Shown here piece by piece: positions 9,239-41,104 of a stretch of DNA of 41,336 bases. Source of the stretch: a virus. The translations under genes and the position numbers were made by a program. The DNA is taken from positions 1 through 41,336 of the IMG/VR virus record IMGVR_UViG_3300028840_001625, one strand, 5' to 3'. The first letter of the stretch is position 1; each line of letters starts with the position of its first letter. The notes beneath the pieces were generated by a model that worked only from the letters and a program-made list of their open reading frames with translations, did not search any database and had not been told where the DNA came from.

Positions 9239-9946
9239 TCAAAGAAAATCATCTAAACACATTTCCGTATCAAAATACCCAATAGCATTGTATTCCTCTA
9301 TAAGAATATTATTATGTTCTCTCATTTTGTTTACGACGGCAGTAATATATTGTGTTCTCAATCCGGTCATTTCACGGATCATTAAGTAGAGTGCTTTTTT
9401 ATTGAAGTTTTCTATATTGATGGAACGTCTGAATAATGTGAGTACGGCGTCCGCAATCATCATTTCTTGACGTTTAGTAAAAATCGTTGTGAGATTGTTT
9501 TCCCAATATTCCACCATCATTTTTATAAACTCAGGTGTATCGTCATTTTGTTTCTTATTTTGAGCTTCATCTATAATATCAAATGCGTATTCTGTCGCAT
9601 TCGTATCTATACGTTGTGAAATTTTCTTGAATTTCCAATGTTCATTGTTACCAAGAATAAGATAGTTTTTCGCCAAGATAGAAAAATAAGAAAAGGCGCG
9701 ACCTTTCTCTTGTTGATACTTGTGCATCTGCATCACAAGAAATGACACCGTATCGGCATGTAAATCTATTGAAGCATCCTGAAAGTGCGGAAACTTAAAT
9801 CTATTTATTATGTTTTCTACCAGTTTGTTTAAAGGTTTTTCTATCTTGTCTCTGTATATCTTCGATTTGAACGTCTGATCGTCGGACTCGTTGTATTCGA
9901 CGATTGCGTTCTCTGTCTCTTTCGTAAAGTAAATCCTCCGCCTCAT
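9239..9946 (-). CDS. Late-transcription sigma factor, T4 gp55-like
   Basis: The 235-residue protein has the conserved start of phage gp55-type sigma factors: FTKETENAIVEYN, then IYRDKIEKPLNKLVENIINRF, followed by a helical region 2-like segment (LVMQMHKYQQEKGRAFSYFSILAKNYLI). In T4, gp55 directs host RNA polymerase to late promoters and contacts the sliding clamp through an acidic/hydrophobic C-terminus. Here the C-terminus ends EMCLDDFL, which could serve the same role (inference). GGAGAGGAAATTA precedes ATG 9946, a strong ribosome site. The start overlaps the upstream membrane-protein gene by 146 bases in another frame. Confidence 0.88.
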   Translation of the reverse strand: MRRRIYFTKETENAIVEYNESDDQTFKSKIYRDKIEKPLNKLVENIINRFKFPHFQDASIDLHADTVSFLVMQMHKYQQEKGRAFSYFSILAKNYLILGNNEHWKFKKISQRIDTNATEYAFDIIDEAQNKKQNDDTPEFIKMMVEYWENNLTTIFTKRQEMMIADAVLTLFRRSINIENFNKKALYLMIREMTGLRTQYITAVVNKMREHNNILIEEYNAIGYFDTEMCLDDFL

Positions 9947-12042: not shown

Positions 12043-12786
12043 TTATACTTCCGGTTCAACCATTGCTAAAGGTTGTGGATTTTCCTCAAAGTCGTGATAT
12101 ATTTCATTCAATATACGAACAAACTCAGGATTCTCAACTTTATACATCAATACATTTTTGTAATAAAATGACCTCTCACCAGGAGTCAAAAGAATATCAA
12201 TCCATTGAGTATGACGTTTATTCATCGTATCTCTAACTTGATATATCCCATCTTGTGCTCCATCAGGAGTTCCCTTGATGAAAATGTAGTCGCCAAAGTT
12301 TATGTCGGCGCCACGTCGATTGAAATGTGTAAGTAAATCCCTACTCAATGCTACATATTTGTATTCACCTGCTCTATCAATGTCAAACTTTGTTCCATCT
12401 GCCGTGATGTCGGGTGTTGAGTCCGTTTGCTCAGGGACTGGATGGTATCCGGTCAAACTTGTTCTATAATACCTCTGTGAAAACATTTCCTTGACAAATT
12501 CTTTTACAAGTCGATCCTTTTCTTTGTGAGCAGCAATCAACTCGTCTTTCTTACCATTTTCATATTGTAATTCAGTAACTTGTCCTTTCAAGTTCTCAAT
12601 ATATTTGTTTTGTTTATAAATGTCAATATTTAGAAACGATGCGTGAAACCACATCGCGAAAAACATAACTATTAAAGCTCCAATACTAAACTTCATTATG
12701 TCAACATTTGTCAAGTTCTTGTACCACGTCTCAACCATTGAACAACCTTTTAAGACTGAATACTTAAATTTGGCGATTGTTTTCAT
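12043..12786 (-). CDS. Membrane-anchored 3D-domain protein (double-psi beta-barrel), possible cell-wall enzyme
   Basis: The 247-residue protein has a transmembrane helix at residues 30-52 (FSIGALIVMFFAMWFHASFL), then a coiled-coil (NLKGQVTELQYENGKKDELI). A periplasm-type domain follows with the 3D-domain pattern of MltA/RpfB relatives. It shows TGYHPVPEQTDSTPDITADG at its start and VRDTMNKRHTQWIDILL near its end, where Asp residues form the '3D' signature. Such domains cut or bind peptidoglycan strands. It might act in lysis or superinfection control, but this is an inference. GGGAGATTTAAATT precedes ATG 12786. Confidence 0.82.
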   Translation of the reverse strand: MKTIAKFKYSVLKGCSMVETWYKNLTNVDIMKFSIGALIVMFFAMWFHASFLNIDIYKQNKYIENLKGQVTELQYENGKKDELIAAHKEKDRLVKEFVKEMFSQRYYRTSLTGYHPVPEQTDSTPDITADGTKFDIDRAGEYKYVALSRDLLTHFNRRGADINFGDYIFIKGTPDGAQDGIYQVRDTMNKRHTQWIDILLTPGERSFYYKNVLMYKVENPEFVRILNEIYHDFEENPQPLAMVEPEV

Positions 12787-13240: not shown

Positions 13241-13262
13241 GAAATGTTCTCCCTATGTGTTG

Positions 13263-13591
13263 TGGAGTCGGCGGGAATTGAACCCGCGTCCAAAATATTT
13301 CAAAATCCAACTTCTACGATTATAGTTTGATTTTGTTATTTTACGTCACGAAAAAACCAAACAAAAGTTGTGACAACGAGTTTTGATTTACTTTGAGTTG
13401 TCGCCCTCAAAGGTTCTACCGATTATGACATCACTTTACCCAATATCGGTGTCTTGGAGTGACGGCTTAATTCGTTGTGATTAAGCAGCTAATTGTAATT
13501 CGTTGCCAGTTATTTTAGGCTTTTGGATTTCCCACTTCCCAGTGAATCGCTATTAAATCTCTCAGTTATCCTGTCGAATCCGATCGACCCC
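13263..13591 (-). ncRNA. ssrA: tmRNA (SsrA), complete one-piece, tag GNELQLAA
   Basis: The 329-base RNA has the canonical tmRNA ends. The 5' end is GGGGTCGATCGGATTCGACAGG; the 3' end carries GGACGCGGGTTCAATTCCCGC and then CGACTCC, which pairs with GGGGTCG to form the acceptor. The tag frame reads GGC AAC GAA TTA CAA TTA GCT GCT TAA, giving GNELQLAA with a glycine resume codon and the LAA end recognised by ClpXP-type proteases. No CCA is encoded. tmRNA with SmpB frees stalled ribosomes and tags the nascent chain; no smpB is in this window, so host SmpB is assumed. A TATAAT box lies directly upstream (about 13594-13599). Confidence 0.95.
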
Positions 13592-15602: not shown

Positions 15603-16247
15603 CTAAACCTTTCCACAACACTTCTTATATTTTTTTTGGCTACCACATGGGCAAGGCTCGTTACGACCTACTTTTTTCTCATTCTTGATGGGCTCAAGTT
15701 TCCATTCCCTATCAAACATCAATACACCATTCAAATGATCAACCTCATGTTGAACGGCGACACTCTCTAATAAACTCGTATCATTTTCCATATCATCACG
15801 ATCTTCGGCAGCAAAATATAATGTTTGATCCTTTTCCCATACTATACTTACACCATTATATATTCCTACCCAATCAACCTTGACTACTATATTTTTCTTT
15901 CTTTTCGTCCTTACACTGGCTCCAGGAAATGAAACACAACCCTCTTGATACCACGTTTCGCCATCACTCTCGATGATTGTTGGATTGACTAATACTATTG
16001 GTTCTTTCGCCCGAATTACACAAATCTTCTTTCGAATACCAATCTGGGGCGCTGATAGACCAACATCATTTTCATTACGTGCCGATAAAGTAGCCCATAG
16101 TTGTTCGGCTATATCTCCTGCTTCAGTTGTGTCCTTTACTTTAGAACTACGTTTTCGTAATACCGTTTCGTCCGTTATAATAGGGAGAGCACGAGACTTC
16201 GCGCTCTCCTTGAGTGTTTCTTTTAATTCATCTAATGCTTTGCTCAT
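15603..16247 (-). CDS. def: Peptide deformylase with C-terminal SEC-C motif
   Basis: All three deformylase motifs are present in the 214-residue protein: [10 protein letters not shown] (motif 1), EGCVSFPG (motif 2, metal Cys) and [11 protein letters not shown] (motif 3, HExxH with catalytic Glu). Deformylase removes the N-formyl group from new proteins. The last 25 residues are a SEC-C zinc motif ([18 protein letters not shown]), known from SecA and other proteins that bind ribosomes or SecB. A deformylase with this tail is unusual; a role in positioning on the ribosome is inferred. The gene starts with an ATGA-type overlap after the 151-residue gene. Confidence 0.93.
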
Positions 16248-18994: not shown

Positions 18995-19984
18995 TTAATA
19001 CCCCAAAATTTCGCTTATATGTTTTTTAGCTTGTTCTATACGATCATTATAATCGTCGCCATGAATTATCTTATATTCCCAATTACGATTGTCTAACTCT
19101 TTCCTAATCATTCCATAATGTTCAACCCTACGATTTGAAAATGTCCTTGTTCCATCGTCAACCCAAGGCACTTCAGGTGTCAAAAGTAAATGTAAATGAT
19201 ACTTACTATTCCACGACTGTGTCGCTATCCACGCTGGACACGGAACGTTATATAACTCCGCCCACGTCTGTGTCGTCATTAAATCCGTATCACAAATCAA
19301 TAACCGGTTCGCGTGTCTCGCAACTTCATCTTCCCATTGTAATTGACCAGCAGCTATCCGTGAAAAATCCATTGAATTTATCTGAGCGTTCCTTTTCATA
19401 TTGTCAGTATATACCCTACCATATTCAGGTACAAAAGCTGTCTTGTAATGTACGGCTAATTCGTGTGCCATTGTTGTCTTTCCAACAGATTCAGGTCCAA
19501 CTAATACCACTTTCTTGGCGAAAAAATGACGAGCTTCCTTTGGTATCATTTCCCAGTTCGTCATTGGATTTCCACGAATATCCGTCCCTGATATTGGAAA
19601 TGTAACTCTCAACTTGTCCACACATTCATGTTTGATACCAAAAATCTCAGATATTTGATTACCATATTCCTCAGATGTAAATACCACATCTAAATTGCTT
19701 GGTGTATTATCCTTGATTATTTGTGTCCACACTTCCCAAAATTTTACCGGACCTTGATCATAAGTTTCAGGATAATCAGGTACATTTGTCAAGTGAATGA
19801 CATTTGCTTTTGGGAACTTTTCTTTGATCCAATTATAACGAAGATAACCGGGTATAAATTCCGACTCCAAACTACATATTAATATTGTTAAGTTTTTCGC
19901 CCGTTTGAGCCCTTCCTCAATCAAATATGAATGTCCATTGTGTAAAGGATAAAACTTACCTAATATCAACCCATGTTTATACAT
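18995..19984 (-). CDS. nadR: NadR-like bifunctional NMN adenylyltransferase / nicotinamide riboside kinase
   Basis: The protein has two catalytic domains. Residues 5-150 are a nucleotidyltransferase with GKFYPLHNGHSYLIEEGLKR (HxGH-type site GKF.PLHNGH) and ISGTDIRGNP, as in NMN adenylyltransferases. Residues 160-329 are a P-loop kinase with VGPESVGKTTMAHELA and the NadR-type PEYGRVYTDN and ICDTDLMTT. The kinase makes NMN from nicotinamide riboside and the first domain makes NAD+ from NMN. No N-terminal DNA-binding domain is present, unlike enterobacterial NadR. I use ATG 19984 because GAGGG lies 8 bases before it; ATG 19990 is too close. It is the last gene of the receptor-PnuC-helicase-NadR cassette. 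Confidence 0.93.
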   Translation of the reverse strand: MYKHGLILGKFYPLHNGHSYLIEEGLKRAKNLTILICSLESEFIPGYLRYNWIKEKFPKANVIHLTNVPDYPETYDQGPVKFWEVWTQIIKDNTPSNLDVVFTSEEYGNQISEIFGIKHECVDKLRVTFPISGTDIRGNPMTNWEMIPKEARHFFAKKVVLVGPESVGKTTMAHELAVHYKTAFVPEYGRVYTDNMKRNAQINSMDFSRIAAGQLQWEDEVARHANRLLICDTDLMTTQTWAELYNVPCPAWIATQSWNSKYHLHLLLTPEVPWVDDGTRTFSNRRVEHYGMIRKELDNRNWEYKIIHGDDYNDRIEQAKKHISEILGY

Positions 19985-21299
19985 GACCATTTCCCTCTAT
20001 TATTTCTTCCCATGTTATTTTCTTACCACTACTATTGTTTGACATCGTTAAAAATTCGATGGCTCTCGAGGCAGCTGTGTAAAGCCAGCGGGGATTGTCG
20101 CCCCAATAATCGTTGTGAATGTATACATTATCCCACTGTGAGCCTTGTGACTTGTGAGCCGTTATCGCATATCCATATGTTGTTATCAAAACGCTTCTAC
20201 TCAATATAGGTTTCTTGTAAAACTTTCTATCAATCAAATGTTCCAAATCAAAAGGTAATGTGGTTATATCTATCTCAGGATGATAGATTGATGGGCGTAC
20301 CGTATTCGGGAATAAAAACATATCATACTCTCCATCACGACCCATTATTTCTACTTTACAATAATAACAATCTCCAAAACTATCGCCATCTTTGGAATAG
20401 ATTTCTAATGGGCGAATGTCGATTACTTTGTTTACCCGGAATGTCTCCGAATTCTTGTAAGTAGGTGAATTAGCAATCACGATTATTTGATCAGTCTTCC
20501 GGAGCGCACTTGGTTCTTCACCAAACTTGTGTGTTCTGGCCAACTTGTTCAACAATACTCGTGTCTTGTTTTTCGCCACAATGAAAACACTATCATCATA
20601 GTTTTTTAAGCCGTCAAGCCATTTCTTTCCAACTTCCTCAATGTCTAAAACATCCACTTCATCTTTTGACTTTGTTGGAACACAGGACTTCTTTATTTCT
20701 CTCAACTTTGTAACATAGTCAAGGATAACTCCATCATGACGTTGAACATTTTTTAACTCGTAATGTGGATTCCTCAATACTTTTGGATCATCACCGACTG
20801 GCTCAAGTTGAAATCCATCACCTATCTTTATTACTTTCGCCCCATGTTTGGCGATGTGTTTGTTGATGTCGTTGTTTACAAATGTGTCTATCATACTCGA
20901 TTCATCTATGATAACAAGTTGTCCTTGTGTAAAACTACACTTGGCATTCCAGTTTCCATCGTCGTCGGGCTCGCCATAGAGCAAACTGTGTAACGTCCTA
21001 AACTTTTCCTTGTAATCAATTAACCCGGCTAACCAATCTGCTGACTTGTGTCTCAATACCTTGACCGCAGCATTTGTTGGTGCTGATACATAAACATCAT
21101 AATGTAAAATGTCACGAGCATATGAAAATATGTTTTCTATGATTGTGGTTTTACCTGTTCCAGCATATCCTGCTAACTTGAAAGTATTCAAGTTTTGATC
21201 ATACGTTTTTGGTTTCTTTAGAAATTTCTCAACTTCCAGTAACGCTTCCTTTTGATCCTTTGTATAACTAATCTTTTCACTACGTTGTTTGAGTATCAT
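19977..21299 (-). CDS. Dda/RecD-like 5'-3' DNA helicase (SF1B)
   Basis: The 440-residue protein has a Walker A site GYAGTGKTTIIENIF, the motif II IDESSMID, a motif III-like GDGFQLEPVGDD, and the C-terminal UvrD-like strand YAITAHKSQGSQWDNVYIHN followed by YTAASRAI (motif VI). Size and motif order match T4 Dda (about 439 residues), which helps start DNA replication and remove bound proteins. The gene starts 20 bases inside the pnuC end with GGAGAGAG and ends 8 bases into the start of nadR. Its location inside an NAD salvage cassette has no obvious functional reason. Confidence 0.92.
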   Translation of the reverse strand: MILKQRSEKISYTKDQKEALLEVEKFLKKPKTYDQNLNTFKLAGYAGTGKTTIIENIFSYARDILHYDVYVSAPTNAAVKVLRHKSADWLAGLIDYKEKFRTLHSLLYGEPDDDGNWNAKCSFTQGQLVIIDESSMIDTFVNNDINKHIAKHGAKVIKIGDGFQLEPVGDDPKVLRNPHYELKNVQRHDGVILDYVTKLREIKKSCVPTKSKDEVDVLDIEEVGKKWLDGLKNYDDSVFIVAKNKTRVLLNKLARTHKFGEEPSALRKTDQIIVIANSPTYKNSETFRVNKVIDIRPLEIYSKDGDSFGDCYYCKVEIMGRDGEYDMFLFPNTVRPSIYHPEIDITTLPFDLEHLIDRKFYKKPILSRSVLITTYGYAITAHKSQGSQWDNVYIHNDYWGDNPRWLYTAASRAIEFLTMSNNSSGKKITWEEIIEGNGHV

Positions 21300-21879
21300 A
21301 TAACTCTCTCCATTTCCTGTAACCTTGTAACGCCATAAAGAAGAATAAGGCGTATAATCCTGCTGTCATATATAATTCTTTGTAAATAAAAACACCTACA
21401 TAAATAACATCTACTGTGATCCATAAAAACCAATTCTCTATATATCGTTTCGCCAGATAAAAGTTGGCGACCAAACTCAATGATGTGGTAAATGAATCTA
21501 TAATAGGAATATCCGGTTGTCCAATGTAACCACCTTGATACAATCCCATTATTATACTATAAATGAACCACGTTCCTACTAAAACATACATCATAATGGT
21601 TAAAACCATTGTGTCTTTTGGACACGCAGCAAATTGATCCTTATACCTTGTTATTGGTGCTGGTGGCTTGTTACGCAGTTTCGCCCAATTATACCATCCA
21701 TAAAATGATTGACACAAAAATACGATTTGTGTTATGACCTCGGCGTACAGGTTCACAGAGAAAAACAAATGTAAATAAGCACTTACTCCAATAATACCTA
21801 ACGGCCACGCAATAACCTTGTTTTGTATAGTAAAATATACACACGCTAATGTGAATAGAACAGCAATAATTTCTATCAT
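21280..21879 (-). CDS. pnuC: PnuC-family nicotinamide riboside transporter
   Basis: The 199-residue membrane protein has about seven hydrophobic helices and the PnuC hallmarks: NKVIAWPLGIIGVSAYL near the N-terminus, FLCQSFYGWYNWAKLR in the middle, then NFYLAKRYIENWFLWITVDV and KELYMTAGLYALFFFMALQG. PnuC transports unphosphorylated nicotinamide riboside (or thiamine in relatives) by facilitated diffusion and depends on a cytoplasmic kinase for trapping. NadR, encoded two genes away, supplies that kinase, which points to nicotinamide riboside. It starts as ATGA on the stop of the receptor gene. Confidence 0.93.
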   Translation of the reverse strand: MIEIIAVLFTLACVYFTIQNKVIAWPLGIIGVSAYLHLFFSVNLYAEVITQIVFLCQSFYGWYNWAKLRNKPPAPITRYKDQFAACPKDTMVLTIMMYVLVGTWFIYSIIMGLYQGGYIGQPDIPIIDSFTTSLSLVANFYLAKRYIENWFLWITVDVIYVGVFIYKELYMTAGLYALFFFMALQGYRKWRELYDTQTT

Positions 21880-23804
21880 AAGTTTATTGTAACTCCAAGT
21901 GTATAGTTTCTTAAAGCAGCTACATAATAGTTTGCTCCATCATATACATAACCACTATTATAATAATCATTATCAAACACATTGTTTATTGTAAAACTAA
22001 ATATCAACTCTTTGAATGTCGTTTTGAAATATAAATCAGTAACAAAATATGGTTTCATCTTCGTTGTGTTTTCATTATCTAAAAATGATTCTCCCATATA
22101 TCTACAATATACTCCACTCGTAAAATAATGATTTACATTGTAAATCAAGTTCCCGGTGTAAGTCAACTCCGGACTTAACAATGGAGTAACATCTTTGTAG
22201 ACGCCGTACTCTTTTATATTCGATTTATTCACACCTATAAAATTGAACATACTCAAATCTTTTGAAAACTTATATGTTGATTCAATTTCTATTCCTTGTC
22301 TTGTACTCTTTGGTACATTCATTCTCAATGGTAATCCAATGTAACTTAGTTCACCTATGGCGGCGATTTCATTGGTGAAATCCATATGATATAGATTTAC
22401 ATTCAATGTGAAGTCCTTTTCAATATACTTAATTCCCGCCTCAATGTCAAGAACTTTTTCTGGCTCAACTTGATAAGCTTCGTGAATGTTATCTTCATTT
22501 AGATCATCTTCGCCATTGAATAAATCGTTTCGTGTTGGTTCTCTCATGTTTTGACCAATAGAAACATAATACATTCCATACTTTACGCCGACCTTTGGAT
22601 TCACAAATAACCATGAAGTTTTTGGTGGCGAAACACTACCATTGTAAATAAACTCGTTGTATCTTACTTGTACGTCACCAAATAAATCTATGTCTCTCGT
22701 TATGTCATAACTACCTTTTATAAAACCACTCGCCTCATTCTTGATCCCATAATTCTTGTAAACCTCGTCGCCAATTATATCCATTGAATGATTTCGTTTA
22801 TAGGTGTATAAATGAAAACCCGAGTATAGTTTTAACCTTGTAAAATCATAGTTTACATTTAATATGTTACCTAAATAGTATGAATCTAAATTAAAGTTCA
22901 ACATATCCTCTGCCAGAACACCATATGTACCATCTAACTTGATAAAATAGATTGTATTCGTTACGTGTTCACTCATATATGATAATGAATTGAACCAATA
23001 ATGAAAATGATCCTTTTCGTTGGGCGACAAGTAATTCATTTGACGATTGTAACTTAAATCATTTTCGTGTGTCGCCAGGTACGCCATTTCATTCTCTTGA
23101 TTTCCATAAAATGTTATATACTTGAATGCATAGTTTTCCTTGAATACTCCACCACTTAAATAAAATGAATAACCATAATGACCGGAATTGTCACGGTAAC
23201 CTTTCGTATTTACCCTTGAAAATCTTAGATTCAAGCCAATACCATCTTCATTTATACCGAAACTCTGTTCCGCCATGAACTTGTATGTATTGTATGATCC
23301 ATAATTGAAATTCAACCTTGAGTATTCTTCGTCTAAAGTCTTTGATGTGAAATTGAGTGATCCACCATAAGAAGCTGTACCATTACTTGTAGTTCCAACT
23401 CCACGTTGTATTTGTACATCTTGAACGGAACTCAAAAAATCAGGATAGTTGTTGAAATAAACTCCCATATCTTCAGGTTCATTTAGTGGAACACCATCTA
23501 ATGTAGCATTGATCCTTGTTTGATCAATCCCGCGAAGGCGAAAATAAGAATAACCATAAAATGTTCCCATGTCAGAATAAAACTGAATCGCGGGAGTGTA
23601 TGTCAGCATCGCTGGAACATCTTTGTCGTCTAAAGGTATTTGTTGTAAATCATCTTGAGAATATGTTTTCTCTGTAATAGGATTATCTTTTATTCTAAGA
23701 TGTCCTACAACTGAAATTTCTCCATCATATTCATAAACCTTTAGTGTATCTTGTGAAAATACAAATGAAACAAACAACAATAAAATAACCATTATTTTAA
23801 ACAT
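21876..23804 (-). CDS. TonB-dependent outer-membrane receptor
   Basis: I start at ATG 23804 (MFKIMVILLLFVSFVFSQDT) because AAAGGGG precedes it and a clear signal peptide follows; an ATG at 23849 adds 15 residues and no signal logic. The 642-residue protein has a short region after the signal with a TonB-box-like stretch (GEISVVGHLRIK). The plug domain runs over about residues 40-155 (DVPAMLTYTPAIQFY, FRLRGIDQTRINATLDGVPL, VQDVQIQRGVG, ASYGGSLNFTSK). The rest is barrel strands rich in Tyr/Phe. Such receptors import scarce nutrients across the outer membrane. ATGA coupling to pnuC suggests nicotinamide riboside or a related compound as substrate (inference). Confidence 0.93.
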   Translation of the reverse strand: MFKIMVILLLFVSFVFSQDTLKVYEYDGEISVVGHLRIKDNPITEKTYSQDDLQQIPLDDKDVPAMLTYTPAIQFYSDMGTFYGYSYFRLRGIDQTRINATLDGVPLNEPEDMGVYFNNYPDFLSSVQDVQIQRGVGTTSNGTASYGGSLNFTSKTLDEEYSRLNFNYGSYNTYKFMAEQSFGINEDGIGLNLRFSRVNTKGYRDNSGHYGYSFYLSGGVFKENYAFKYITFYGNQENEMAYLATHENDLSYNRQMNYLSPNEKDHFHYWFNSLSYMSEHVTNTIYFIKLDGTYGVLAEDMLNFNLDSYYLGNILNVNYDFTRLKLYSGFHLYTYKRNHSMDIIGDEVYKNYGIKNEASGFIKGSYDITRDIDLFGDVQVRYNEFIYNGSVSPPKTSWLFVNPKVGVKYGMYYVSIGQNMREPTRNDLFNGEDDLNEDNIHEAYQVEPEKVLDIEAGIKYIEKDFTLNVNLYHMDFTNEIAAIGELSYIGLPLRMNVPKSTRQGIEIESTYKFSKDLSMFNFIGVNKSNIKEYGVYKDVTPLLSPELTYTGNLIYNVNHYFTSGVYCRYMGESFLDNENTTKMKPYFVTDLYFKTTFKELIFSFTINNVFDNDYYNSGYVYDGANYYVAALRNYTLGVTINL

Positions 23805-23817
23805 AACTACCCCTTTC

Positions 23818-24042
23818 TTATCTAAATGCGATAAAGTCCAATTCATCAAGTTTAACTGTTTGGCAAAATGGATGTGAATCTTTCGGGTCTTTTGGTTGCA
23901 TAACCACTATTCCCATTTCGTCTTTTGTTTCGCCGTCTGGGCTTACTCTTGTCCATTGATGAACTAATGTTACACGACATTCATTATATGATTCATCCTT
24001 GAACTTTACCCACGGCCCTTCACTCATTTCGATTTTTTTCAT
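23818..24042 (-). CDS. Small soluble protein upstream of receptor gene
   Basis: I choose ATG 24042 (MKKIEMSEGPWVKFKDESY), which overlaps the previous stop as TGATG with GGGGAAG just before it; an upstream start at 24072 would overlap more. The 74-residue protein has a compact beta pattern (ECRVTLVHQWTRVSPDG, MGIVVMQPKDPK) and ends LDELDFIAFR. It is translated just before the receptor gene. No function recognised. Confidence 0.7.
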   Translation of the reverse strand: MKKIEMSEGPWVKFKDESYNECRVTLVHQWTRVSPDGETKDEMGIVVMQPKDPKDSHPFCQTVKLDELDFIAFR

Positions 24043-24388: not shown

Positions 24389-24390
24389 AG

Positions 24391-24470
24391 AACTCTCGGT
24401 GAGATTCGAACTCACGTTTTCAGCTCCGGCTACGGCTAACAGGGTCGAAACCTGCCCCGGCTACGAGAGC
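24391..24470 (-). tRNA. Aberrant tRNA-Arg-like gene (anticodon TCG) without a normal D-arm
   Basis: Acceptor GCTCTCG pairs with CGAGAGT (G1-U72). A regular anticodon arm GCAGG / loop TTTCGAC / CCTGT gives anticodon TCG with T33 and A37. The T-arm GTGAG TTCGAAT CTCAC is normal. Between acceptor and anticodon arm only 8 bases (TAGCCGGG) exist instead of a D-arm, while 23 bases (ending in GGAGCTGAAAAC) lie between the anticodon and T arms. The second gene at 24615 has the same layout base for base. It may be a tRNA with a displaced D-like element, or a tRNA mimic. No CCA is encoded. Confidence 0.6.
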
Positions 24471-25817: not shown

Positions 25818-26351
25818 TTATTCTCCTTTTAATTTATTTATCGCCTCTTGAATCAAATCTTCATGAAACCCTTTTTCCATTGTAGTATGTATAAACTTTC
25901 CCTTATGTAAGGGCTCAATATCAGACAATTCATCATCTATAATTATATAAGAATCAACATTTTTATTCTCACTCAACCATAAATTTATCTCATTTCCACG
26001 TTCATGTTCCCAAAACATTTGTAAATCATTTATAGTTTTGATTCCTATATCCTCTTTATACTCTTTCCAAACTGGCGTCCTTCCTATAACAATCCCACGA
26101 AAGTCGGCGTTCATCAAATACATAATCAACTCATTTATTGGATGTAAATCTCGCCATGACGATGATATAACTACAAATGCTTGCGTTTCATCTATAACCT
26201 TGTTGATGTTTTCTACCAACTTTGGATCAATCATTTTTTGACTATACAAATTACGATCACCATCTTTATTCGCTTTCGCAAATGTACGGGCGTCACTGAT
26301 AGAATCATTGGTACATATTACTCCATCAAAATCTAAAAATATAACTTTCAT
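25818..26351 (-). CDS. HAD-superfamily phosphatase-like protein
   Basis: The 177-residue protein shows HAD motif I (IFLDFDGVICTND, nucleophile Asp), motif II (VISSSWRD) and motif IV (IIIDDELSDI). Its size and the SSSWR element match the HAD domain seen in 'Swiss-army-knife' RNA-repair proteins and stand-alone phage copies. The substrate is not known; RNA 3'-phosphate or nucleotide is possible. ATGA overlaps with the preceding small membrane gene. Confidence 0.87.
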   Translation of the reverse strand: MKVIFLDFDGVICTNDSISDARTFAKANKDGDRNLYSQKMIDPKLVENINKVIDETQAFVVISSSWRDLHPINELIMYLMNADFRGIVIGRTPVWKEYKEDIGIKTINDLQMFWEHERGNEINLWLSENKNVDSYIIIDDELSDIEPLHKGKFIHTTMEKGFHEDLIQEAINKLKGE

Positions 26352-29604: not shown

Positions 29605-30375
29605 TTAATCTCCTATATTTCTACTTGTTATCCATTTTTCAATTATATATCTTTTATCCTTTACAAAATATGGTATTCTTGTATCGGCGACCCAGCGTGA
29701 CCTTTCCACCATTCCATCACCAACTACCACATCGTAACTTTCTTTATATACGACAAATCCCCACTTTTGTAAAGGTGTAAGATTATCCCACAAAATACCC
29801 TTTTTATAACACATATCAACCATTTCTTGTTGATTCTTTCCATTACATTCACTGTGACTATATAATGAACGAGCAAGAGCTTGAATGGAATTTCTCTTGG
29901 CATCTTGTTGTCTCCAAATGAAAACATTTTCTATTTCGCCGACAGTTGGCACATTGAAAACTCGGGCATCAAATAATGCTGATGTCCATTGATCAAAATG
30001 ACCCACTCCCTTTAGATTGAAATGTGCGGTGAACGCGGAAGCCATAATGGATGTGATCTTTTGTATCTTTCCACCAAAATACATTTGTGAATCAGGATTC
30101 GCCCATCCATTCAATAAAAATGTGACTTCATCAGATTGCCCGTAAGCCATAAGTATTTGTCCTACATCACGACATAAATCAATAGTCGCTTGTTGAAACA
30201 ATAATGACAAACGATAATCAAATGGTTTCTCGATGTTCATTCGTTTTACCCATGTGTGAAACGCCTTACCATCAAGGCGAACAAACGTAGGCATATTTTG
30301 ATTTACATATCCTAACTCCGGAGAATAAAATTCCTTCTCATACATTTTCATCCGGTCGCCTAATGAATCACTCAT
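29605..30375 (-). CDS. Thg1-like tRNA guanylyltransferase / 3'-5' polymerase
   Basis: The protein has the Thg1 metal-binding motifs: FVRLDGKAFHTW (Asp-Gly of the first site), and AYGQSDEVTFLLNGW (SDE of the second site), placed 50 residues apart as in Thg1. The rest matches Thg1 length and features (GGKIQKITSIMASAFTAHFN, NVFIWRQQDAKRNSI). Eukaryotic Thg1 adds G-1 to tRNA-His; bacterial and phage Thg1-like proteins repair 5'-truncated tRNAs by 3'-5' addition. I start at ATG 30375 because GGAGG lies just before it. It fits the RNA-repair group in this window (HAD, tRNAs). Confidence 0.92.
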   Translation of the reverse strand: MSDSLGDRMKMYEKEFYSPELGYVNQNMPTFVRLDGKAFHTWVKRMNIEKPFDYRLSLLFQQATIDLCRDVGQILMAYGQSDEVTFLLNGWANPDSQMYFGGKIQKITSIMASAFTAHFNLKGVGHFDQWTSALFDARVFNVPTVGEIENVFIWRQQDAKRNSIQALARSLYSHSECNGKNQQEMVDMCYKKGILWDNLTPLQKWGFVVYKESYDVVVGDGMVERSRWVADTRIPYFVKDKRYIIEKWITSRNIGD

Positions 30376-30662
30376 AATTCCTCCGTCCATTGACAATGTT
30401 CATACGCATCGTTTGAGCCTTCTTCATACTTTAGTTGCATAACTTCATCTATTTCATCTAAAAGTTCTTTGCTCAATTTTATACCAAATTCCACACAAGA
30501 TTCTAACTTAGCCATCAATACATTGTAACGATAATTTACTTCAGATAAAGTAACGTGTTGTATAAACTTTCCATCAATCCATAACTCCGCATCATAATAT
30601 GGATATGAACCATCAATCTTTTTTACGTTACGATATTCTTTATCACGATACTTTTTTCCCAT
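30372..30662 (-). CDS. Unknown small protein coupled to Thg1-like gene
   Basis: The 96-residue protein (start at ATG 30662, MGKKYRDKEYRNVKKIDG) has a strand-rich N-terminal half (YDAELWIDGKFIQHVTLSEV). A helical C-terminal half with acidic residues follows (KELLDEIDEVMQLKYEEGSN). Its stop overlaps the Thg1-like start. An ATG at 30674 is the alternative. No known family. Confidence 0.7.
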   Translation of the reverse strand: MGKKYRDKEYRNVKKIDGSYPYYDAELWIDGKFIQHVTLSEVNYRYNVLMAKLESCVEFGIKLSKELLDEIDEVMQLKYEEGSNDAYEHCQWTEEL

Positions 30663-35833: not shown

Positions 35834-37477
35834 TTAGAATTTATCCATAATAAAGTCACTCATTATAGATGGCGCGTTTGTGTCGAAACCAACAACGTCG
35901 AGTGAGCTTCTATCCTTTGGATCAGCAATAGTGAAACCATTCGATGCCATACCAACTACAACTAACTTGACATCGTGACCCACTTTATGACGATAACGAT
36001 CCATTGCTTCGCTTGGTTGGATATTTCCTGCCCAAGTTTCATTATCGGTATATACAAAAATCGCGTCAAAATCCTTGTTCATACCAGCGGCCCACAATGC
36101 TGGTAAAGCACAATCAGTTCCACCAAAATCTAACCTGCTAACGTAATTATCCACATCATTCAAACTCATTCTATCGTGTAACTTCAATTCCGTTACATTA
36201 GTTAACGCTTGACCAGAACCATACCAACCACCACCGGTAAATCCAATAATACCCCAGTTCTTTTCAGCTTTCATCGTTACCATAGCCATTGCGGACGATG
36301 CGGAACGACAACTGATAAATGGAGCGTTTTGAATACCACTACCCATAGAACCAGATACATCCAAAGCAATCAAGATTCTCTTACCCGTAGACTCAATGTT
36401 CTTGAATGCTTTGTAAAATCCTGCGTCCAAAGCGGAAACGATTTGTGGTACAACGTTCCAAGTATTAGACCCACGAAAACCACGTCCTGCTTCATAGGTT
36501 TTCAAAGCCATTAATAATTGAATAGGATGTACACGTGCTTTCTTTAACGCTTCATCATTAGTGATCTTGTCAACCACTAAGTTGATTTCGTCAAAGTTAC
36601 CACTTTCCAAGATACCAACTTTGGATAAGTTACCTAAATTACGAATTAACGCAGTCATAGGCATTGTTGGTAACAACGCTTCGTATACTTTCTTTCCTAA
36701 GAATTGTGTAGGAATAGCTTCCCGTGGCAAGTTATATTCCTTAATCAAGTTCACAATTTCCTTTTCATTTTCGGCTTTCTTTGCTAACTCAAAACCATAA
36801 ATCATTGGAATTTTCCTATACTTCTCAATGTCGCCATTGATTCCTTGAGTAATCCAATGGAATACCTTGTTCATATCTTCATTGACGGCTTGTGCATGAG
36901 ACTTACGTAAAATGTCACGGTGACTCCACCCGTCACGAGATTGATACTTGACTACTTGATACGCCAACTTGTTGATGTCCTTGTCGGTGTACCACTTGGC
37001 GAATGCCTTACGTAATCCACGACCCCAACCACGCATCGAGTTTACGAACTCTGTGAAATGGAATAAATGAGTACCAATACGTGCTACTTTACTCAAGTTG
37101 TCCAAAGCGTACTTCTTAGCTTCGTCAGTTCCATAGGAAGCAACCATCGCTAATACGAATAACGCTGGATCATTATTAGGTGCACGACCCTCTAAAGAAA
37201 TCTCAACTACACGATTTACAACTTCAATGCCATCTTCCTTGATTAACTTTTCAATGTTCTTAGCATTCTTCTTAGTTAACTTTTGCGCGGATGCGTAATA
37301 AGTTGGTTGATCGCTACCCAATACTAAGAAACGATTTAACTTATCCCACTTGTCCAACTTAAATGAGACGCCACCGCCATAATTCTTAGCCATATCTTTC
37401 TTACGACCCTTGATTTTTTGGTTTTGTGGAGTTGCTACCTTAGTAGACTTGTTTAAAGTTTTGGTATAATTTTGCAT
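35834..37477 (-). CDS. rsr: Ro60 (TROVE) RNA-binding protein with vWA domain
   Basis: The 547-residue protein has the Ro architecture. A HEAT-like TROVE ring runs from about residue 40 to 360 (FLVLGSDQPTYYASAQKLTK, VVNRVVEISLEGRAPNNDPA, GWSHRDILRKSHA). A C-terminal von Willebrand A domain follows with a MIDAS motif LDVSGSMG, a Thr/Ser site (DFGGTDCALPAL) and FVYTDNETW. Ro binds the ends of misfolded or trimmed RNAs through the ring and binds Y RNAs on its outer surface; bacterial Ro (Rsr) works with nucleases in RNA decay and repair. ATG 37477 has AGGAGGG 7 bases upstream; the ATG at 37531 lies in the terminator and is rejected. It is preceded by non-coding RNA genes. Confidence 0.93.
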   Translation of the reverse strand: MQNYTKTLNKSTKVATPQNQKIKGRKKDMAKNYGGGVSFKLDKWDKLNRFLVLGSDQPTYYASAQKLTKKNAKNIEKLIKEDGIEVVNRVVEISLEGRAPNNDPALFVLAMVASYGTDEAKKYALDNLSKVARIGTHLFHFTEFVNSMRGWGRGLRKAFAKWYTDKDINKLAYQVVKYQSRDGWSHRDILRKSHAQAVNEDMNKVFHWITQGINGDIEKYRKIPMIYGFELAKKAENEKEIVNLIKEYNLPREAIPTQFLGKKVYEALLPTMPMTALIRNLGNLSKVGILESGNFDEINLVVDKITNDEALKKARVHPIQLLMALKTYEAGRGFRGSNTWNVVPQIVSALDAGFYKAFKNIESTGKRILIALDVSGSMGSGIQNAPFISCRSASSAMAMVTMKAEKNWGIIGFTGGGWYGSGQALTNVTELKLHDRMSLNDVDNYVSRLDFGGTDCALPALWAAGMNKDFDAIFVYTDNETWAGNIQPSEAMDRYRHKVGHDVKLVVVGMASNGFTIADPKDRSSLDVVGFDTNAPSIMSDFIMDKF

Positions 37478-37521
37478 GATTCGACCCTCCTGTTTAAAGG
37501 TAAATGTTATATAAACTAAAA

Positions 37522-37546
37522 AACCCGACAAGATATTTGTCGGGTT
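37522..37546 (-). terminator. Terminator (possible attenuator) just before Ro gene
   Basis: On the minus strand ACCCGACAA pairs with TTGTCGGGT around a 5-base loop and is followed by six T, 30 bases before the Ro ribosome site. An upstream segment AAGATATTT (37568-37560) is the exact complement of the loop region AAATATCTT (37538-37530), so an alternative fold exists. The pairing supports conditional termination, which is an inference. Confidence 0.8.
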
Positions 37547-38676: not shown

Positions 38677-39030
38677 TCATCCGTCTCGCCATGCTTCAGA
38701 ATAAGTAGAAAATTCAAGATCATCACCGAACTTTTCCTTGAGTTTCTTTTCTACTCTCGCCTTAAATTCGGCTCCAGTTTCATCGTCTTTAACTTGATCC
38801 CACGACACACCAATATAACAACCATAATCTCCGTCATAAGGCCATAGACATTCCATATCAAGTTCTTTTCCTAATTCATATCCAATTTCCCATACATCAG
38901 TATCATCGTCGTCGTTTTCAACTTCCATATTTAAAGCCTCACGAAATTCATCTTCCGATTCAAAACAAATTCCATAAATCAAGAATGAAGATGTGGAACT
39001 ATTACTTACAAACCCATTTCTTACTTTCAT
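38677..39030 (-). CDS. GFVSNSS-family protein 1
   Basis: The 117-residue protein begins MKVRNGFVSNSSTSSFLIYG. The first 16 residues are shared with five neighbours, and the rest differs. The body is acidic (Asp/Glu-rich, ENDDDDTDVWEIGYELGKEL) with aromatic residues. A short 'GFVSNSSSSSF' start is found in various phage and bacterial proteins of unknown role. It is the last of the six complete array genes. GAAAGGAAAAC precedes its ATG. Confidence 0.82.
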   Translation of the reverse strand: MKVRNGFVSNSSTSSFLIYGICFESEDEFREALNMEVENDDDDTDVWEIGYELGKELDMECLWPYDGDYGCYIGVSWDQVKDDETGAEFKARVEKKLKEKFGDDLEFSTYSEAWRDG

Positions 39031-39043
39031 ATTGTTTTCCTTT

Positions 39044-39421
39044 CTAACAATCTACTTCTACTTCAGCAACATTTTTAGGAAGTTTATCTTTAGCAGAATA
39101 CCAAAGTTCACCTGGCCAGATTCCATCTACATTATCATATCCATATTTTTCTTCAAATTCTTCCTCAGACAAATCTTCATCTTCAGGTAATAATGTCACA
39201 GAAAAATCTTCATAAAAACACCAATTACCTGTCATTCCACTAAAAATAACTACATCAAAATCACCAATTTTTTCTTCCTTTCGTCCTAAATAACTATTAT
39301 CAATGACTTGTTTCTCATAAACATCTAAATTGTCTCGCCATTCTTTTTCTTGTTCAGGTGTCATTACAATAGTAAAACTTGAACTTGAACTGTTTGATAC
39401 AAAACCACTACGTATTTTCAT
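39044..39421 (-). CDS. GFVSNSS-family protein 2
   Basis: The 125-residue protein begins MKIRSGFVSNSSSSSFTIVM and continues with a Glu-rich region (TPEQEKEWRDNLDVYEKQVI) and an acidic block (LLPEDEDLSEEEFEEKYGYD). Only the N-terminal motif is similar to neighbours. AGGAGG before ATG 39421 is the strongest ribosome site of the array. Function unknown. Confidence 0.82.
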   Translation of the reverse strand: MKIRSGFVSNSSSSSFTIVMTPEQEKEWRDNLDVYEKQVIDNSYLGRKEEKIGDFDVVIFSGMTGNWCFYEDFSVTLLPEDEDLSEEEFEEKYGYDNVDGIWPGELWYSAKDKLPKNVAEVEVDC

Positions 39422-39435
39422 AACCTTTCCTCCTG

Positions 39436-40035
39436 TTAATGTCTACTTACTTTTATATGATATACCCTACGAAACAATGTACCATGTTCCATAGCAGCAA
39501 ATAATGAACTATCGTTATCACTATATTCAAATGTATAGAATACGGCGTCAGGATTCTTTTCCTTGAATCTCTCTAAAATAGCTTTCGCTCGTTTGTCACT
39601 TTCTTCCTCACGAGCTTTCCAACATTTTTCATATAACTCTCTACCCTTGTCCGTTGTATATCCACCATTTTCTAAGGCTTCCCTTTCCATTTCTTTATAT
39701 TTTTCGTCTCGTTTGTCGCCACGATATACATCAACATGACCAGGTAATTCTTCATATCCATCAAACCAACCATCCCTGATACAATCCAACATTTGTTCAT
39801 CAGTCGTCTCACCATCTTGTTCTTCAATGTCGGCCCATACGATTTGAGCTACTTGATCAACAGGCCAAAATGTGTCCTTGTCGTCCATTCCATATACAAA
39901 AGGATTTGGATAATCGTTTTGACCAGGTGAAAACAAAATCTCTTTTACATCGTTAATGTTTTTTGGTTTACGCGGAAACGCTACCAAAAATGAACTTGAA
40001 CTTGAATTACTTACAAAACCATTTCTAATCTTCAT
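39436..40035 (-). CDS. GFVSNSS-family protein 3
   Basis: At 199 residues this is the longest array member. It begins MKIRNGFVSNSSSSSFLVAF, then carries a distinct body with PRKPKNINDVKEILFSPGQN, DCIRDGWFDGYEELPGHVDV and a long helix ERKYKEMEREALENGGY-like segment. The last part FYTFEYSDNDSSLFAAMEHG looks folded. Body does not resemble any other member. Confidence 0.82.
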   Translation of the reverse strand: MKIRNGFVSNSSSSSFLVAFPRKPKNINDVKEILFSPGQNDYPNPFVYGMDDKDTFWPVDQVAQIVWADIEEQDGETTDEQMLDCIRDGWFDGYEELPGHVDVYRGDKRDEKYKEMEREALENGGYTTDKGRELYEKCWKAREEESDKRAKAILERFKEKNPDAVFYTFEYSDNDSSLFAAMEHGTLFRRVYHIKVSRH

Positions 40036-40510
40036 AACGATAACTACCTCTCTCTAAAAATTTATCAATATTGACTTCCCATGAACCTTTTTGATCCTTT
40101 ACTTCGGCTAAATCCTTATACATCATATATTCCATACCAAAATTTCTGGCGATAAAAACATAATCGTTTCCTTTGTCATATTGTATATAATAATGATCGT
40201 AATGACATAACGCCTTAAATGGAATATGATTTTTCAATAAAAACTCTATTACTTCCCACTCATTACATTCAATCGTATATCCATAAGCAGAAACTAACTC
40301 GCCTCTCAATTCCTCAAATTGATCTTGATAACTTACTTGATCTGGGTAATGAGCCATTGTTTTCCAAAATCCAAATCGTTCTAATTGTTCCATTTTCTTT
40401 TTTGATATAAAAGTCTTTTCACATTTACCTTGAAAATCAAATTGATCCCTAAAATGAACTATAAAAGAACTTGAACTACTATTTGATACAAAACCATTTC
40501 TTACTTTCAT
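40025..40510 (-). CDS. GFVSNSS-family protein 4
   Basis: I start at ATG 40510 (MKVRNGFVSNSSSSSFIVHF), the position conserved in the family, although ATG 40522 is in frame. The 161-residue body has FDFQGKCEKTFISKKKMEQL and a beta-rich middle (CHYDHYYIQYDKGNDYVFIA). It overlaps the next gene by 11 bases. Function unknown. Confidence 0.8.
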   Translation of the reverse strand: MKVRNGFVSNSSSSSFIVHFRDQFDFQGKCEKTFISKKKMEQLERFGFWKTMAHYPDQVSYQDQFEELRGELVSAYGYTIECNEWEVIEFLLKNHIPFKALCHYDHYYIQYDKGNDYVFIARNFGMEYMMYKDLAEVKDQKGSWEVNIDKFLERGSYRYED

Positions 40511-40512
40511 TG

Positions 40513-40785
40513 TTATCTCCACTCAACTTTATTCATGTCAATACCAATATATTCTAAAAACTTATACATATCAAAATTATCCATACTACACCAACCATGA
40601 ATGTATTTTTCGCCAACATCTATATCCCATTCATCGTATTTACCAAAATAATCACCAACATTTTTTAATTTACCATACTCCAAATGATTCTTTATTTTGT
40701 ATAGTTGTTTATCAGTTACACCGTCTCGTTCTATAATAAATGAACTTGATGAACTATTTGATACAAAACCTTGTCTTATCTTCAT
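40513..40785 (-). CDS. GFVSNSS-family protein 5
   Basis: The 90-residue protein begins MKIRQGFVSNSSSSSFIIER. A short body contains LYKIKNHLEYGKLKNVGDYF and ends IGIDMNKVEWR. It is the shortest member, so the motif plus a small domain is sufficient for the family. GGTTGTG precedes the ATG weakly. Confidence 0.8.
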   Translation of the reverse strand: MKIRQGFVSNSSSSSFIIERDGVTDKQLYKIKNHLEYGKLKNVGDYFGKYDEWDIDVGEKYIHGWCSMDNFDMYKFLEYIGIDMNKVEWR

Positions 40786-40786
40786 A

Positions 40787-41104
40787 TTAACACAACCTTA
40801 CACCAGAATAAATCCTTACATCTTTTGAATTAGCACCAAACTCTTTTATAAGTTTTTCAGCCATTTGATTTATGTCCTCTAATGTTAAAACGTCACCACC
40901 AAAATCAGTTTCGTCACCCTCAGCAATCTCTATTCCTATAACAGTTTCATCAACTCCGTCCTCTCCGCCTTCATACAAAATTGTATATACATCTTGTAAA
41001 TCATCTAATTGATTCTCGTCATATTTACTATCGTCAAATGGAATGCCTACAATAACAAATGAACTTGTCGAACTATTACTTACAAACCCTACTCTTTTTT
41101 TCAT
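40787..41104 (-). CDS. GFVSNSS-family protein 6
   Basis: The 105-residue protein begins MKKRVGFVSNSSTSSFVIVG and carries an acidic, Asp/Glu-rich body (DDSKYDENQLDDLQDVYTIL, EDGVDETVIGIEIAEGDETD). AGGAGG stands at ideal distance before the ATG. The body differs from the other five. Confidence 0.82.
   Translation of the reverse strand: MKKRVGFVSNSSTSSFVIVGIPFDDSKYDENQLDDLQDVYTILYEGGEDGVDETVIGIEIAEGDETDFGGDVLTLEDINQMAEKLIKEFGANSKDVRIYSGVRLC

What the first reader, a model, noticed from the sequence alone, without database searches (positions are those of the whole stretch)
13263..13591. Complete phage-encoded tmRNA with tag GNELQLAA
Seen: canonical 5' and 3' tmRNA ends, a tag frame with Gly resume codon and LAA end, a promoter box just upstream. 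Known: tmRNA releases stalled ribosomes; phage copies are uncommon. The tag is shorter than the usual ten residues. Inferred: the phage may rescue ribosomes stalled by host defences or by degraded mRNA. Compare tag and resume codon with host tmRNAs to find the host group.
Basis: partly seen in the sequence, partly recalled or inferred. Interest (0 to 1): 0.76.

Follow-up and report, generated by a model that had tools for sequence, protein, structure and literature searches.

The report
Intact phage tmRNA at conserved locus
This phage carries a complete tmRNA, the RNA that frees stalled bacterial ribosomes. It is an ordinary member of a known RNA family, but it sits at a locus inherited across a large group of marine phages, in which the short peptide tag it encodes has ranged from 8 to 43 amino acids.

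Summary
The minus strand at 13591-13262 carries a full one-piece tmRNA (RF00023, 137 bits, E 1e-53; also called by ARAGORN). Its tag is GNELQLAA, with alanine identity pair G3-U70, A73, stop hairpin H5 and four compact pseudoknots. The 'promoter box' is not supported: TATAAT ends two bases before the mature 5' end. An 8-residue tag lies within the normal range.

The best explanation is a working tmRNA that uses the host's SmpB and alanyl-tRNA synthetase to recycle stalled ribosomes. It sits beside other translation genes: peptide deformylase, initiator tRNA and over 40 tRNAs. SmpB is absent from the 161-kb contig that contains the window. A Bacteroidia host is unlikely, because the phage uses Shine-Dalgarno sites and Bacteroidia do not.

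The unexpected part lies in relatives. The gene is orthologous across a large environmental phage clade: deformylase/IMPDH - tmRNA - w12043 - late-sigma-like gene - baseplate genes. In two sister lineages the tag is again 8 residues. In many marine relatives it is 20-43 residues (G[DE]xSLxGLxIDWHLA...QPTYAYAA), in register and under codon-level selection. ARAGORN truncates or misses many of these. I found no report of such tags. The window tmRNA is a new member of a known kind; the long-tag relatives look like a new variant.

The parts
13262..13591 (-). One-piece tmRNA gene (ssrA), 330 nt; G1 at 13591, discriminator A73 at 13263, C74 at 13262; no encoded CCA
   Evidence: ARAGORN; RF00023 137 bits, E 1e-53, model 1-374; acceptor stem 7/7 with G3-U70
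13481..13507 (-). Tag reading frame GGC AAC GAA UUA CAA UUA GCU GCU UAA = GNELQLAA*; resume codon GGC at nt 85
   Evidence: ARAGORN; resume codon at nt 80-100 in the 28 phage tmRNAs read
13525..13544 (-). Minimal PK1: CACU/AGUG plus GGA/UCC (nt 48-67)
   Evidence: Stem positions; much shorter than in Bacteroidia chromosomal tmRNAs
13466..13486 (-). H5 hairpin containing the tag stop codon (nt 106-126)
13331..13462 (-). PK2 (nt 130-174), PK3 (nt 180-216) and PK4 (nt 218-261)
   Evidence: H-type stem order found in the window; PK2-PK4 kept with different sequences in L198 and L071
12835..12909 (-). tRNA-Gly(GCC) downstream of the tmRNA, conserved in sister phages
   Evidence: also in L006, L032 and L050 and L198
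14374..15540 (-). IMPDH/GMP-reductase-like gene upstream of the tmRNA, syntenic in relatives
   Evidence: PF00478 E 8e-103; synteny
15603..16247 (-). Peptide deformylase with SEC-C motif, syntenic in relatives
   Evidence: PF01327 E 9e-26
12043..12786 (-). Conserved downstream phage gene of unknown function (synteny marker)
   Evidence: PHROG unknown function
9239..9946 (-). Putative late-sigma-like gene (inferred; no profile match), used to find relatives
   Evidence: alignment A1; related loci; no PHROG match

Best explanation
The feature is a complete, working phage-encoded tmRNA. Host alanyl-tRNA synthetase charges it through G3-U70, after CCA completion. Host SmpB and EF-Tu deliver it to ribosomes stalled on mRNAs without a stop codon. 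The ribosome switches to GGC and adds (Ala)-GNELQLAA, stops at UAA in H5, and is recycled. The LAA end should send the product to ClpXP-type proteases. The phage keeps it as part of a translation kit (deformylase, initiator tRNA, over 40 tRNAs) that maintains ribosome supply during infection. Shown: the gene, its parts, its conservation, its synteny, and the absence of SmpB from the 161-kb contig. Inferred: expression, charging, tagging, degradation and benefit to the phage.
For: Full-length CM match. All 27 phage tmRNAs with an intact 5' end keep a 7/7 acceptor stem, G3-U70 and A73 despite different stem sequences. Pseudoknots are re-formed from different sequences in L198 and L071, at 58% nucleotide identity to L071. 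The tag frame ends AA in the window and both sister lineages. The locus is syntenic from 84% down to about 45% protein identity. No SmpB in the phage contigs tested. Translation kit: deformylase, initiator-type tRNA and about 44 tRNAs.
Against: No transcript or tagged peptide has been observed. PK1 is reduced to a short hairpin with at most 2-3 pairs in the second stem. Some relatives with the surrounding genes have no detected tmRNA (L237, L252, L255), so it is dispensable in places. The host, and hence the host tag, is unknown. No promoter was identified.
Confidence: 0.82

Rival explanations
1. A decoy: the phage RNA binds host SmpB and synthetase and blocks host trans-translation, as the tag-less tRNA-like domain of phage DS6A does when expressed in E. 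coli.
For: DS6A precedent (PMC4131195, PMC11915505). A huge phage related through its baseplate gene carries both a full tmRNA and a 112-nt tag-less version.
Against: A decoy needs no tag frame, H5, stop codon or pseudoknots. All are kept here, and in relatives the tags evolve under codon-level selection.
Confidence: 0.06
2. Passenger or integration scar: an ssrA copy picked up from a host at a prophage attachment site, with no function in the phage.
For: ssrA is a common integration site, and many phage BLAST hits are short ssrA 3' ends.
Against: The gene is complete and lies inside a colinear virion/translation region in many lineages. It is only 40-49% identical to the sampled Bacteroidia tmRNAs, so it is not a recent copy from one of those.
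Confidence: 0.04
3. The main role is proteolysis or sensing rather than ribosome supply: the phage tag redirects truncated proteins to degradation to recycle amino acids, or couples ribosome stalling to lysis timing.
For: Proteolysis role proposed for phage Melnitz (PMC9004378) and sensing for huge phages (PMC7162821). The LAA-type ending is kept.
Against: No direct evidence here. It does not explain why the N-terminal part and length of the tag vary so freely among relatives.
Confidence: 0.08

Closest known systems
Bacterial one-piece tmRNA (ssrA, Rfam RF00023), chromosomal Bacteroidia examples
   Same: tRNA-like domain with G3-U70 and A73, Gly resume codon, tag ending LAA, H5, pseudoknots, usually no encoded CCA
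   Different: 330 nt against roughly 350-410; minimal PK1; Leu-Gln-Leu-Ala-Ala instead of Tyr-Ala-Leu-Ala-Ala; 40-49% identity; carried by a phage that uses Shine-Dalgarno sites
Phage tmRNAs (Bacillus phage G, Streptomyces phages Tomas and Annadreamy, Melnitz-like phages)
   Same: Complete phage-borne tmRNA; in Annadreamy it is next to tRNA genes
   Different: Unrelated phages and different tags (phage G AKLNITNNELQVA; Tomas DNSNVAFALAA); Melnitz has a two-piece form (PMC9004378)
Orthologous tmRNAs of the same environmental phage clade (L071, L198, L034/L035/L049, L290-L307)
   Same: Same locus and gene order, same identity elements
   Different: Tags of 8-10, 20, 24-25 and 35-43 residues instead of 8

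Membership tests
tmRNA (RF00023) | Covariance-model match over the full length above the curated cut-off | tested here: met
   137 bits against 47, model 1-374
tmRNA (RF00023) | tRNA-like domain with alanine identity (G3-U70, A73) and T arm, no anticodon arm | tested here: met
   7/7 acceptor stem, G3-U70, A73; T arm in the alignment
tmRNA (RF00023) | Tag reading frame with resume codon and in-frame stop | tested here: met
   GNELQLAA*; resume codon at nt 85
tmRNA (RF00023) | Pseudoknots PK1-PK4 and helix 5 | tested here: met
   All five elements written out in H-type order; PK2-PK4 re-formed with other sequences in two sister lineages. PK1 second stem is only 3 bp
tmRNA (RF00023) | Partner protein SmpB available | tested here: inconclusive
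   None in the window, the 161-kb contig or three related contigs; presumed supplied by the host, which is unknown
tmRNA (RF00023) | Alanine charging and protein tagging | not testable with these tools
   Needs biochemistry
Bacteroidia-derived tmRNA | Phage matches its presumed host in translation signals | tested here: not met
   SD-like core before 65% of window genes (control 17%) against 7% (control 9%) in Bacteroidia loci
Tag-less inhibitory tmRNA (DS6A type) | tRNA-like domain only, no tag frame | tested here: not met
   Tag frame and pseudoknots present

The most novel reading that the evidence does not exclude
The window tmRNA belongs to an ancestral phage locus where the encoded tag has become a phage-specific, fast-evolving peptide. 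It is 8 residues here and 20-43 residues in many relatives, with a conserved acidic G[DE]xSLxGLxIDWHLA head in front of a YAYAA-type degron in the largest group. The tmRNA would then attach a functional peptide, such as a docking site for a phage or host adaptor, and not only a plain degradation signal.
Probability: 0.35. Interest if true: 0.68.

Novelty: new member of a known kind. Interest (0 to 1): 0.45.

Why it matters
It turns an isolated 'phage tmRNA' note into an evolutionary series: one orthologous locus in a widespread environmental phage clade, present in some lineages and not found in others, with tags from 8 to 43 residues. That gives a natural experiment on what phages need from trans-translation (ribosome recycling or the tag itself). 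It also shows that ARAGORN truncates or misses many phage tags, so database tags for such phages should be rechecked.

Tried and rejected
Host from tag: a genome-wide pattern for GNE...LAA tags hit only two Bacteroidales MAGs, but Shine-Dalgarno usage argues against Bacteroidia, so the host is left open. Amber recoding: the suppressor-like tRNA(CUA) suggested a changed code, but TAG still ends about 25 of some 230 predicted ORFs in the 161-kb contig; rejected. Promoter next to the tmRNA: rejected. Thg1 needed for tRNA-His: not required, because the phage tRNA-His gene encodes G-1. Origin of the long tags: no Pfam or PDB match; INPHARED gave nothing significant. Megablast of the first 25 kb of the window against annotated phages: none. 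Mycobacteriophage comparators (Bxz1, Wildcat, Cali, Catera) are not in the collection under the accessions tried.

Full report
OBSERVATION. The feature is real. ARAGORN and Rfam RF00023 (137 bits, E 1e-53, full length) agree on a one-piece tmRNA on the minus strand from 13591 to 13262, tag GNELQLAA*. The acceptor stem GGGGUCG/CGACUCC has the alanine determinant G3-U70 and A73. The gene encodes C74 but not CCA, like nearly all tRNAs of the same phage and most of the Bacteroidia tmRNAs sampled. Writing out the stems gives PK1, H5 with the stop codon, PK2, PK3 and PK4 in correct H-type order. PK1 is unusually small compared with chromosomal tmRNAs. The RNA folds better than shuffles (z -2.5). The claimed promoter box is not usable: TATAAT ends two bases before the mature 5' end, and the scan finds no sigma-70-like site on this strand.

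CONTEXT. The tmRNA of the window is identical to that of a 161,620-bp phage contig, and by position the window lies inside that contig. It is a contractile-tailed phage, judged by its baseplate wedge genes. Nearby are IMPDH/GMP reductase and peptide deformylase and tRNA-Gly(GCC). The large contig carries about 44 tRNA genes, including an initiator-type tRNA-Met and a CUA tRNA. No SmpB is encoded in the five phage contigs tested, so the host must supply it. Shine-Dalgarno-like motifs precede 65% of window genes and 59% of genes in the large contig (controls 17% and 9%), against 7% (control 9%) in Bacteroidia chromosomal loci. So although Gly-Asn tags look like those of Bacteroidia, a Bacteroidia host is unlikely and the host remains unknown.

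ORTHOLOGY. The gene is not a random pick-up. In sister contigs L032/L050 (wedge 73% identical) and in L198, the tmRNA lies in the same place: window gene 13622, tmRNA, tRNA-Gly, 12043, 10232, 9239 (tmRNA positions; gene order). Their tags are NNSYQLAA and GNSYALAA. More distant contigs (L034, L035, L049; wedge 45-46%) also have a tmRNA upstream of the same genes. A search with the putative late-sigma gene 9239 (sigma identity inferred by eye; no profile match) found many relatives. Of 50 contigs tested, 18 carry a tmRNA above the cut-off. By simple arithmetic on those coordinates, 17 of the 18 tmRNAs lie 2 to 12 kb upstream of that gene in the same orientation; the window value is 3.3 kb. In several the order IMPDH - tmRNA - 12043 - 10232 - 9239 is the same as in the window (with coordinates). 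Other contigs keep neighbouring genes with no detected tmRNA (L237, L252, L255), so the gene is widespread but dispensable. All 27 phage tmRNAs with an intact 5' end keep G3-U70 and A73 with a perfect seven-pair stem.

TAG EVOLUTION. In the 28 phage tmRNAs read, the resume codon lies at nt 80-100. Tags are 8 residues in the window and its sisters, 9-10 in L290 and L292, 20 in L291/L293/L294, 24-25 in L304/L034/L035/L049, and 36-40 in the L295-L307 group apart from L300 (20) and L304 (24). Of the 80 matches examined, 62 could be read as complete tags of 35-43 residues, 48 of them distinct, of the form G[DE]xSLxGLxIDWHLA ... QPTYAYAA. Eleven sampled contigs all pass Rfam's tmRNA cut-off. The long frames are under coding selection. 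Over six disjoint sequence pairs the differences by codon position are 18/9/40 and pN/pS is 0.22, and in nearly all cases the other two frames contain stops. Over 46 N-terminal sequences the tag frame has pN/pS 0.47, against about 1 in the other frames. ARAGORN reports shortened tags for some of these (11 residues for L222/L298, 21 for L354, 8 for L034) and misses others. The extensions are acidic (net charge -3 to -9) and have no Pfam or PDB relative. The tmRNA database paper gives 10 residues as the commonest tag length and reports 2-residue tags as a new extreme; the passages I read do not discuss long tags (PMC11915505). From memory, some mycobacteriophage tmRNAs have tags of about 25 residues; I could not check this here.

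MECHANISM. The anatomy supports ordinary trans-translation with host SmpB and alanyl-tRNA synthetase, with products ending in LAA sent to proteolysis. The company of deformylase, initiator tRNA and a large tRNA set supports a role in keeping translation productive. These last steps are inference. A decoy role is disfavoured because the tag frame, H5 and pseudoknots are all maintained. An integration scar is disfavoured by completeness and synteny.

VERDICT. The window feature is a well-formed new member of a known family, in a known setting: 402 of 18,146 phage genomes carry tmRNAs (PMC9004378). Its tag is not abnormally short. The interest lies in the orthologous series and above all in the long-tag relatives.

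Noticed in passing
L295-L307 and L336-L412 (e.g. L298 nt 93 of the tmRNA; L344 6707-7124): tmRNAs of related marine phages encode 35-43-residue tags with a conserved acidic head and a YAYAA-type end; ARAGORN shortens or misses many of them.
   Followed up: yes
L188 (LR756508, 414804-414915) and L182 (92434-92880): A 484-kb huge phage, related through its baseplate gene, carries both a full tmRNA with a possible 36-residue tag and a 112-nt tmRNA-like RNA without a tag domain.
   Followed up: partly
L092 14362-14433 and L099 12975-13050: tRNA genes with anticodon CUA (amber suppressor-like) in both this phage and its sister; TAG is still used as a stop codon in the 161-kb contig.
   Followed up: partly
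161-kb contig, L090-L094 tRNA genes: 43 of 44 tRNA genes lack an encoded CCA, yet all show C directly after the discriminator base, as the tmRNA does.
   Followed up: partly
window 29605-30396: Thg1-like tRNA-His guanylyltransferase, although the phage tRNA-His gene already encodes G-1; perhaps a tRNA 5'-end repair enzyme.
   Followed up: partly
window 35834-37531 and 25818-26351: Ro60/TROVE protein and a HAD domain of the RNA-repair type in the same phage, suggesting an RNA repair or quality-control set.
   Followed up: no
window 21876-23849, 21280-21879, 18995-19990: TonB-dependent receptor (closest annotated phage matches in huge phages), NMN transporter and a NadR-like AAA-domain gene.
   Followed up: no
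window 24390-24470: Odd tRNA-like gene that ARAGORN could not type; the stem could be a tRNA-Arg(UCG) with an abnormal D region.
   Followed up: no
window 38677-41104: Tandem array of six small paralogues that all begin with a GFVSNSS[ST]SSF-type motif.
   Followed up: no
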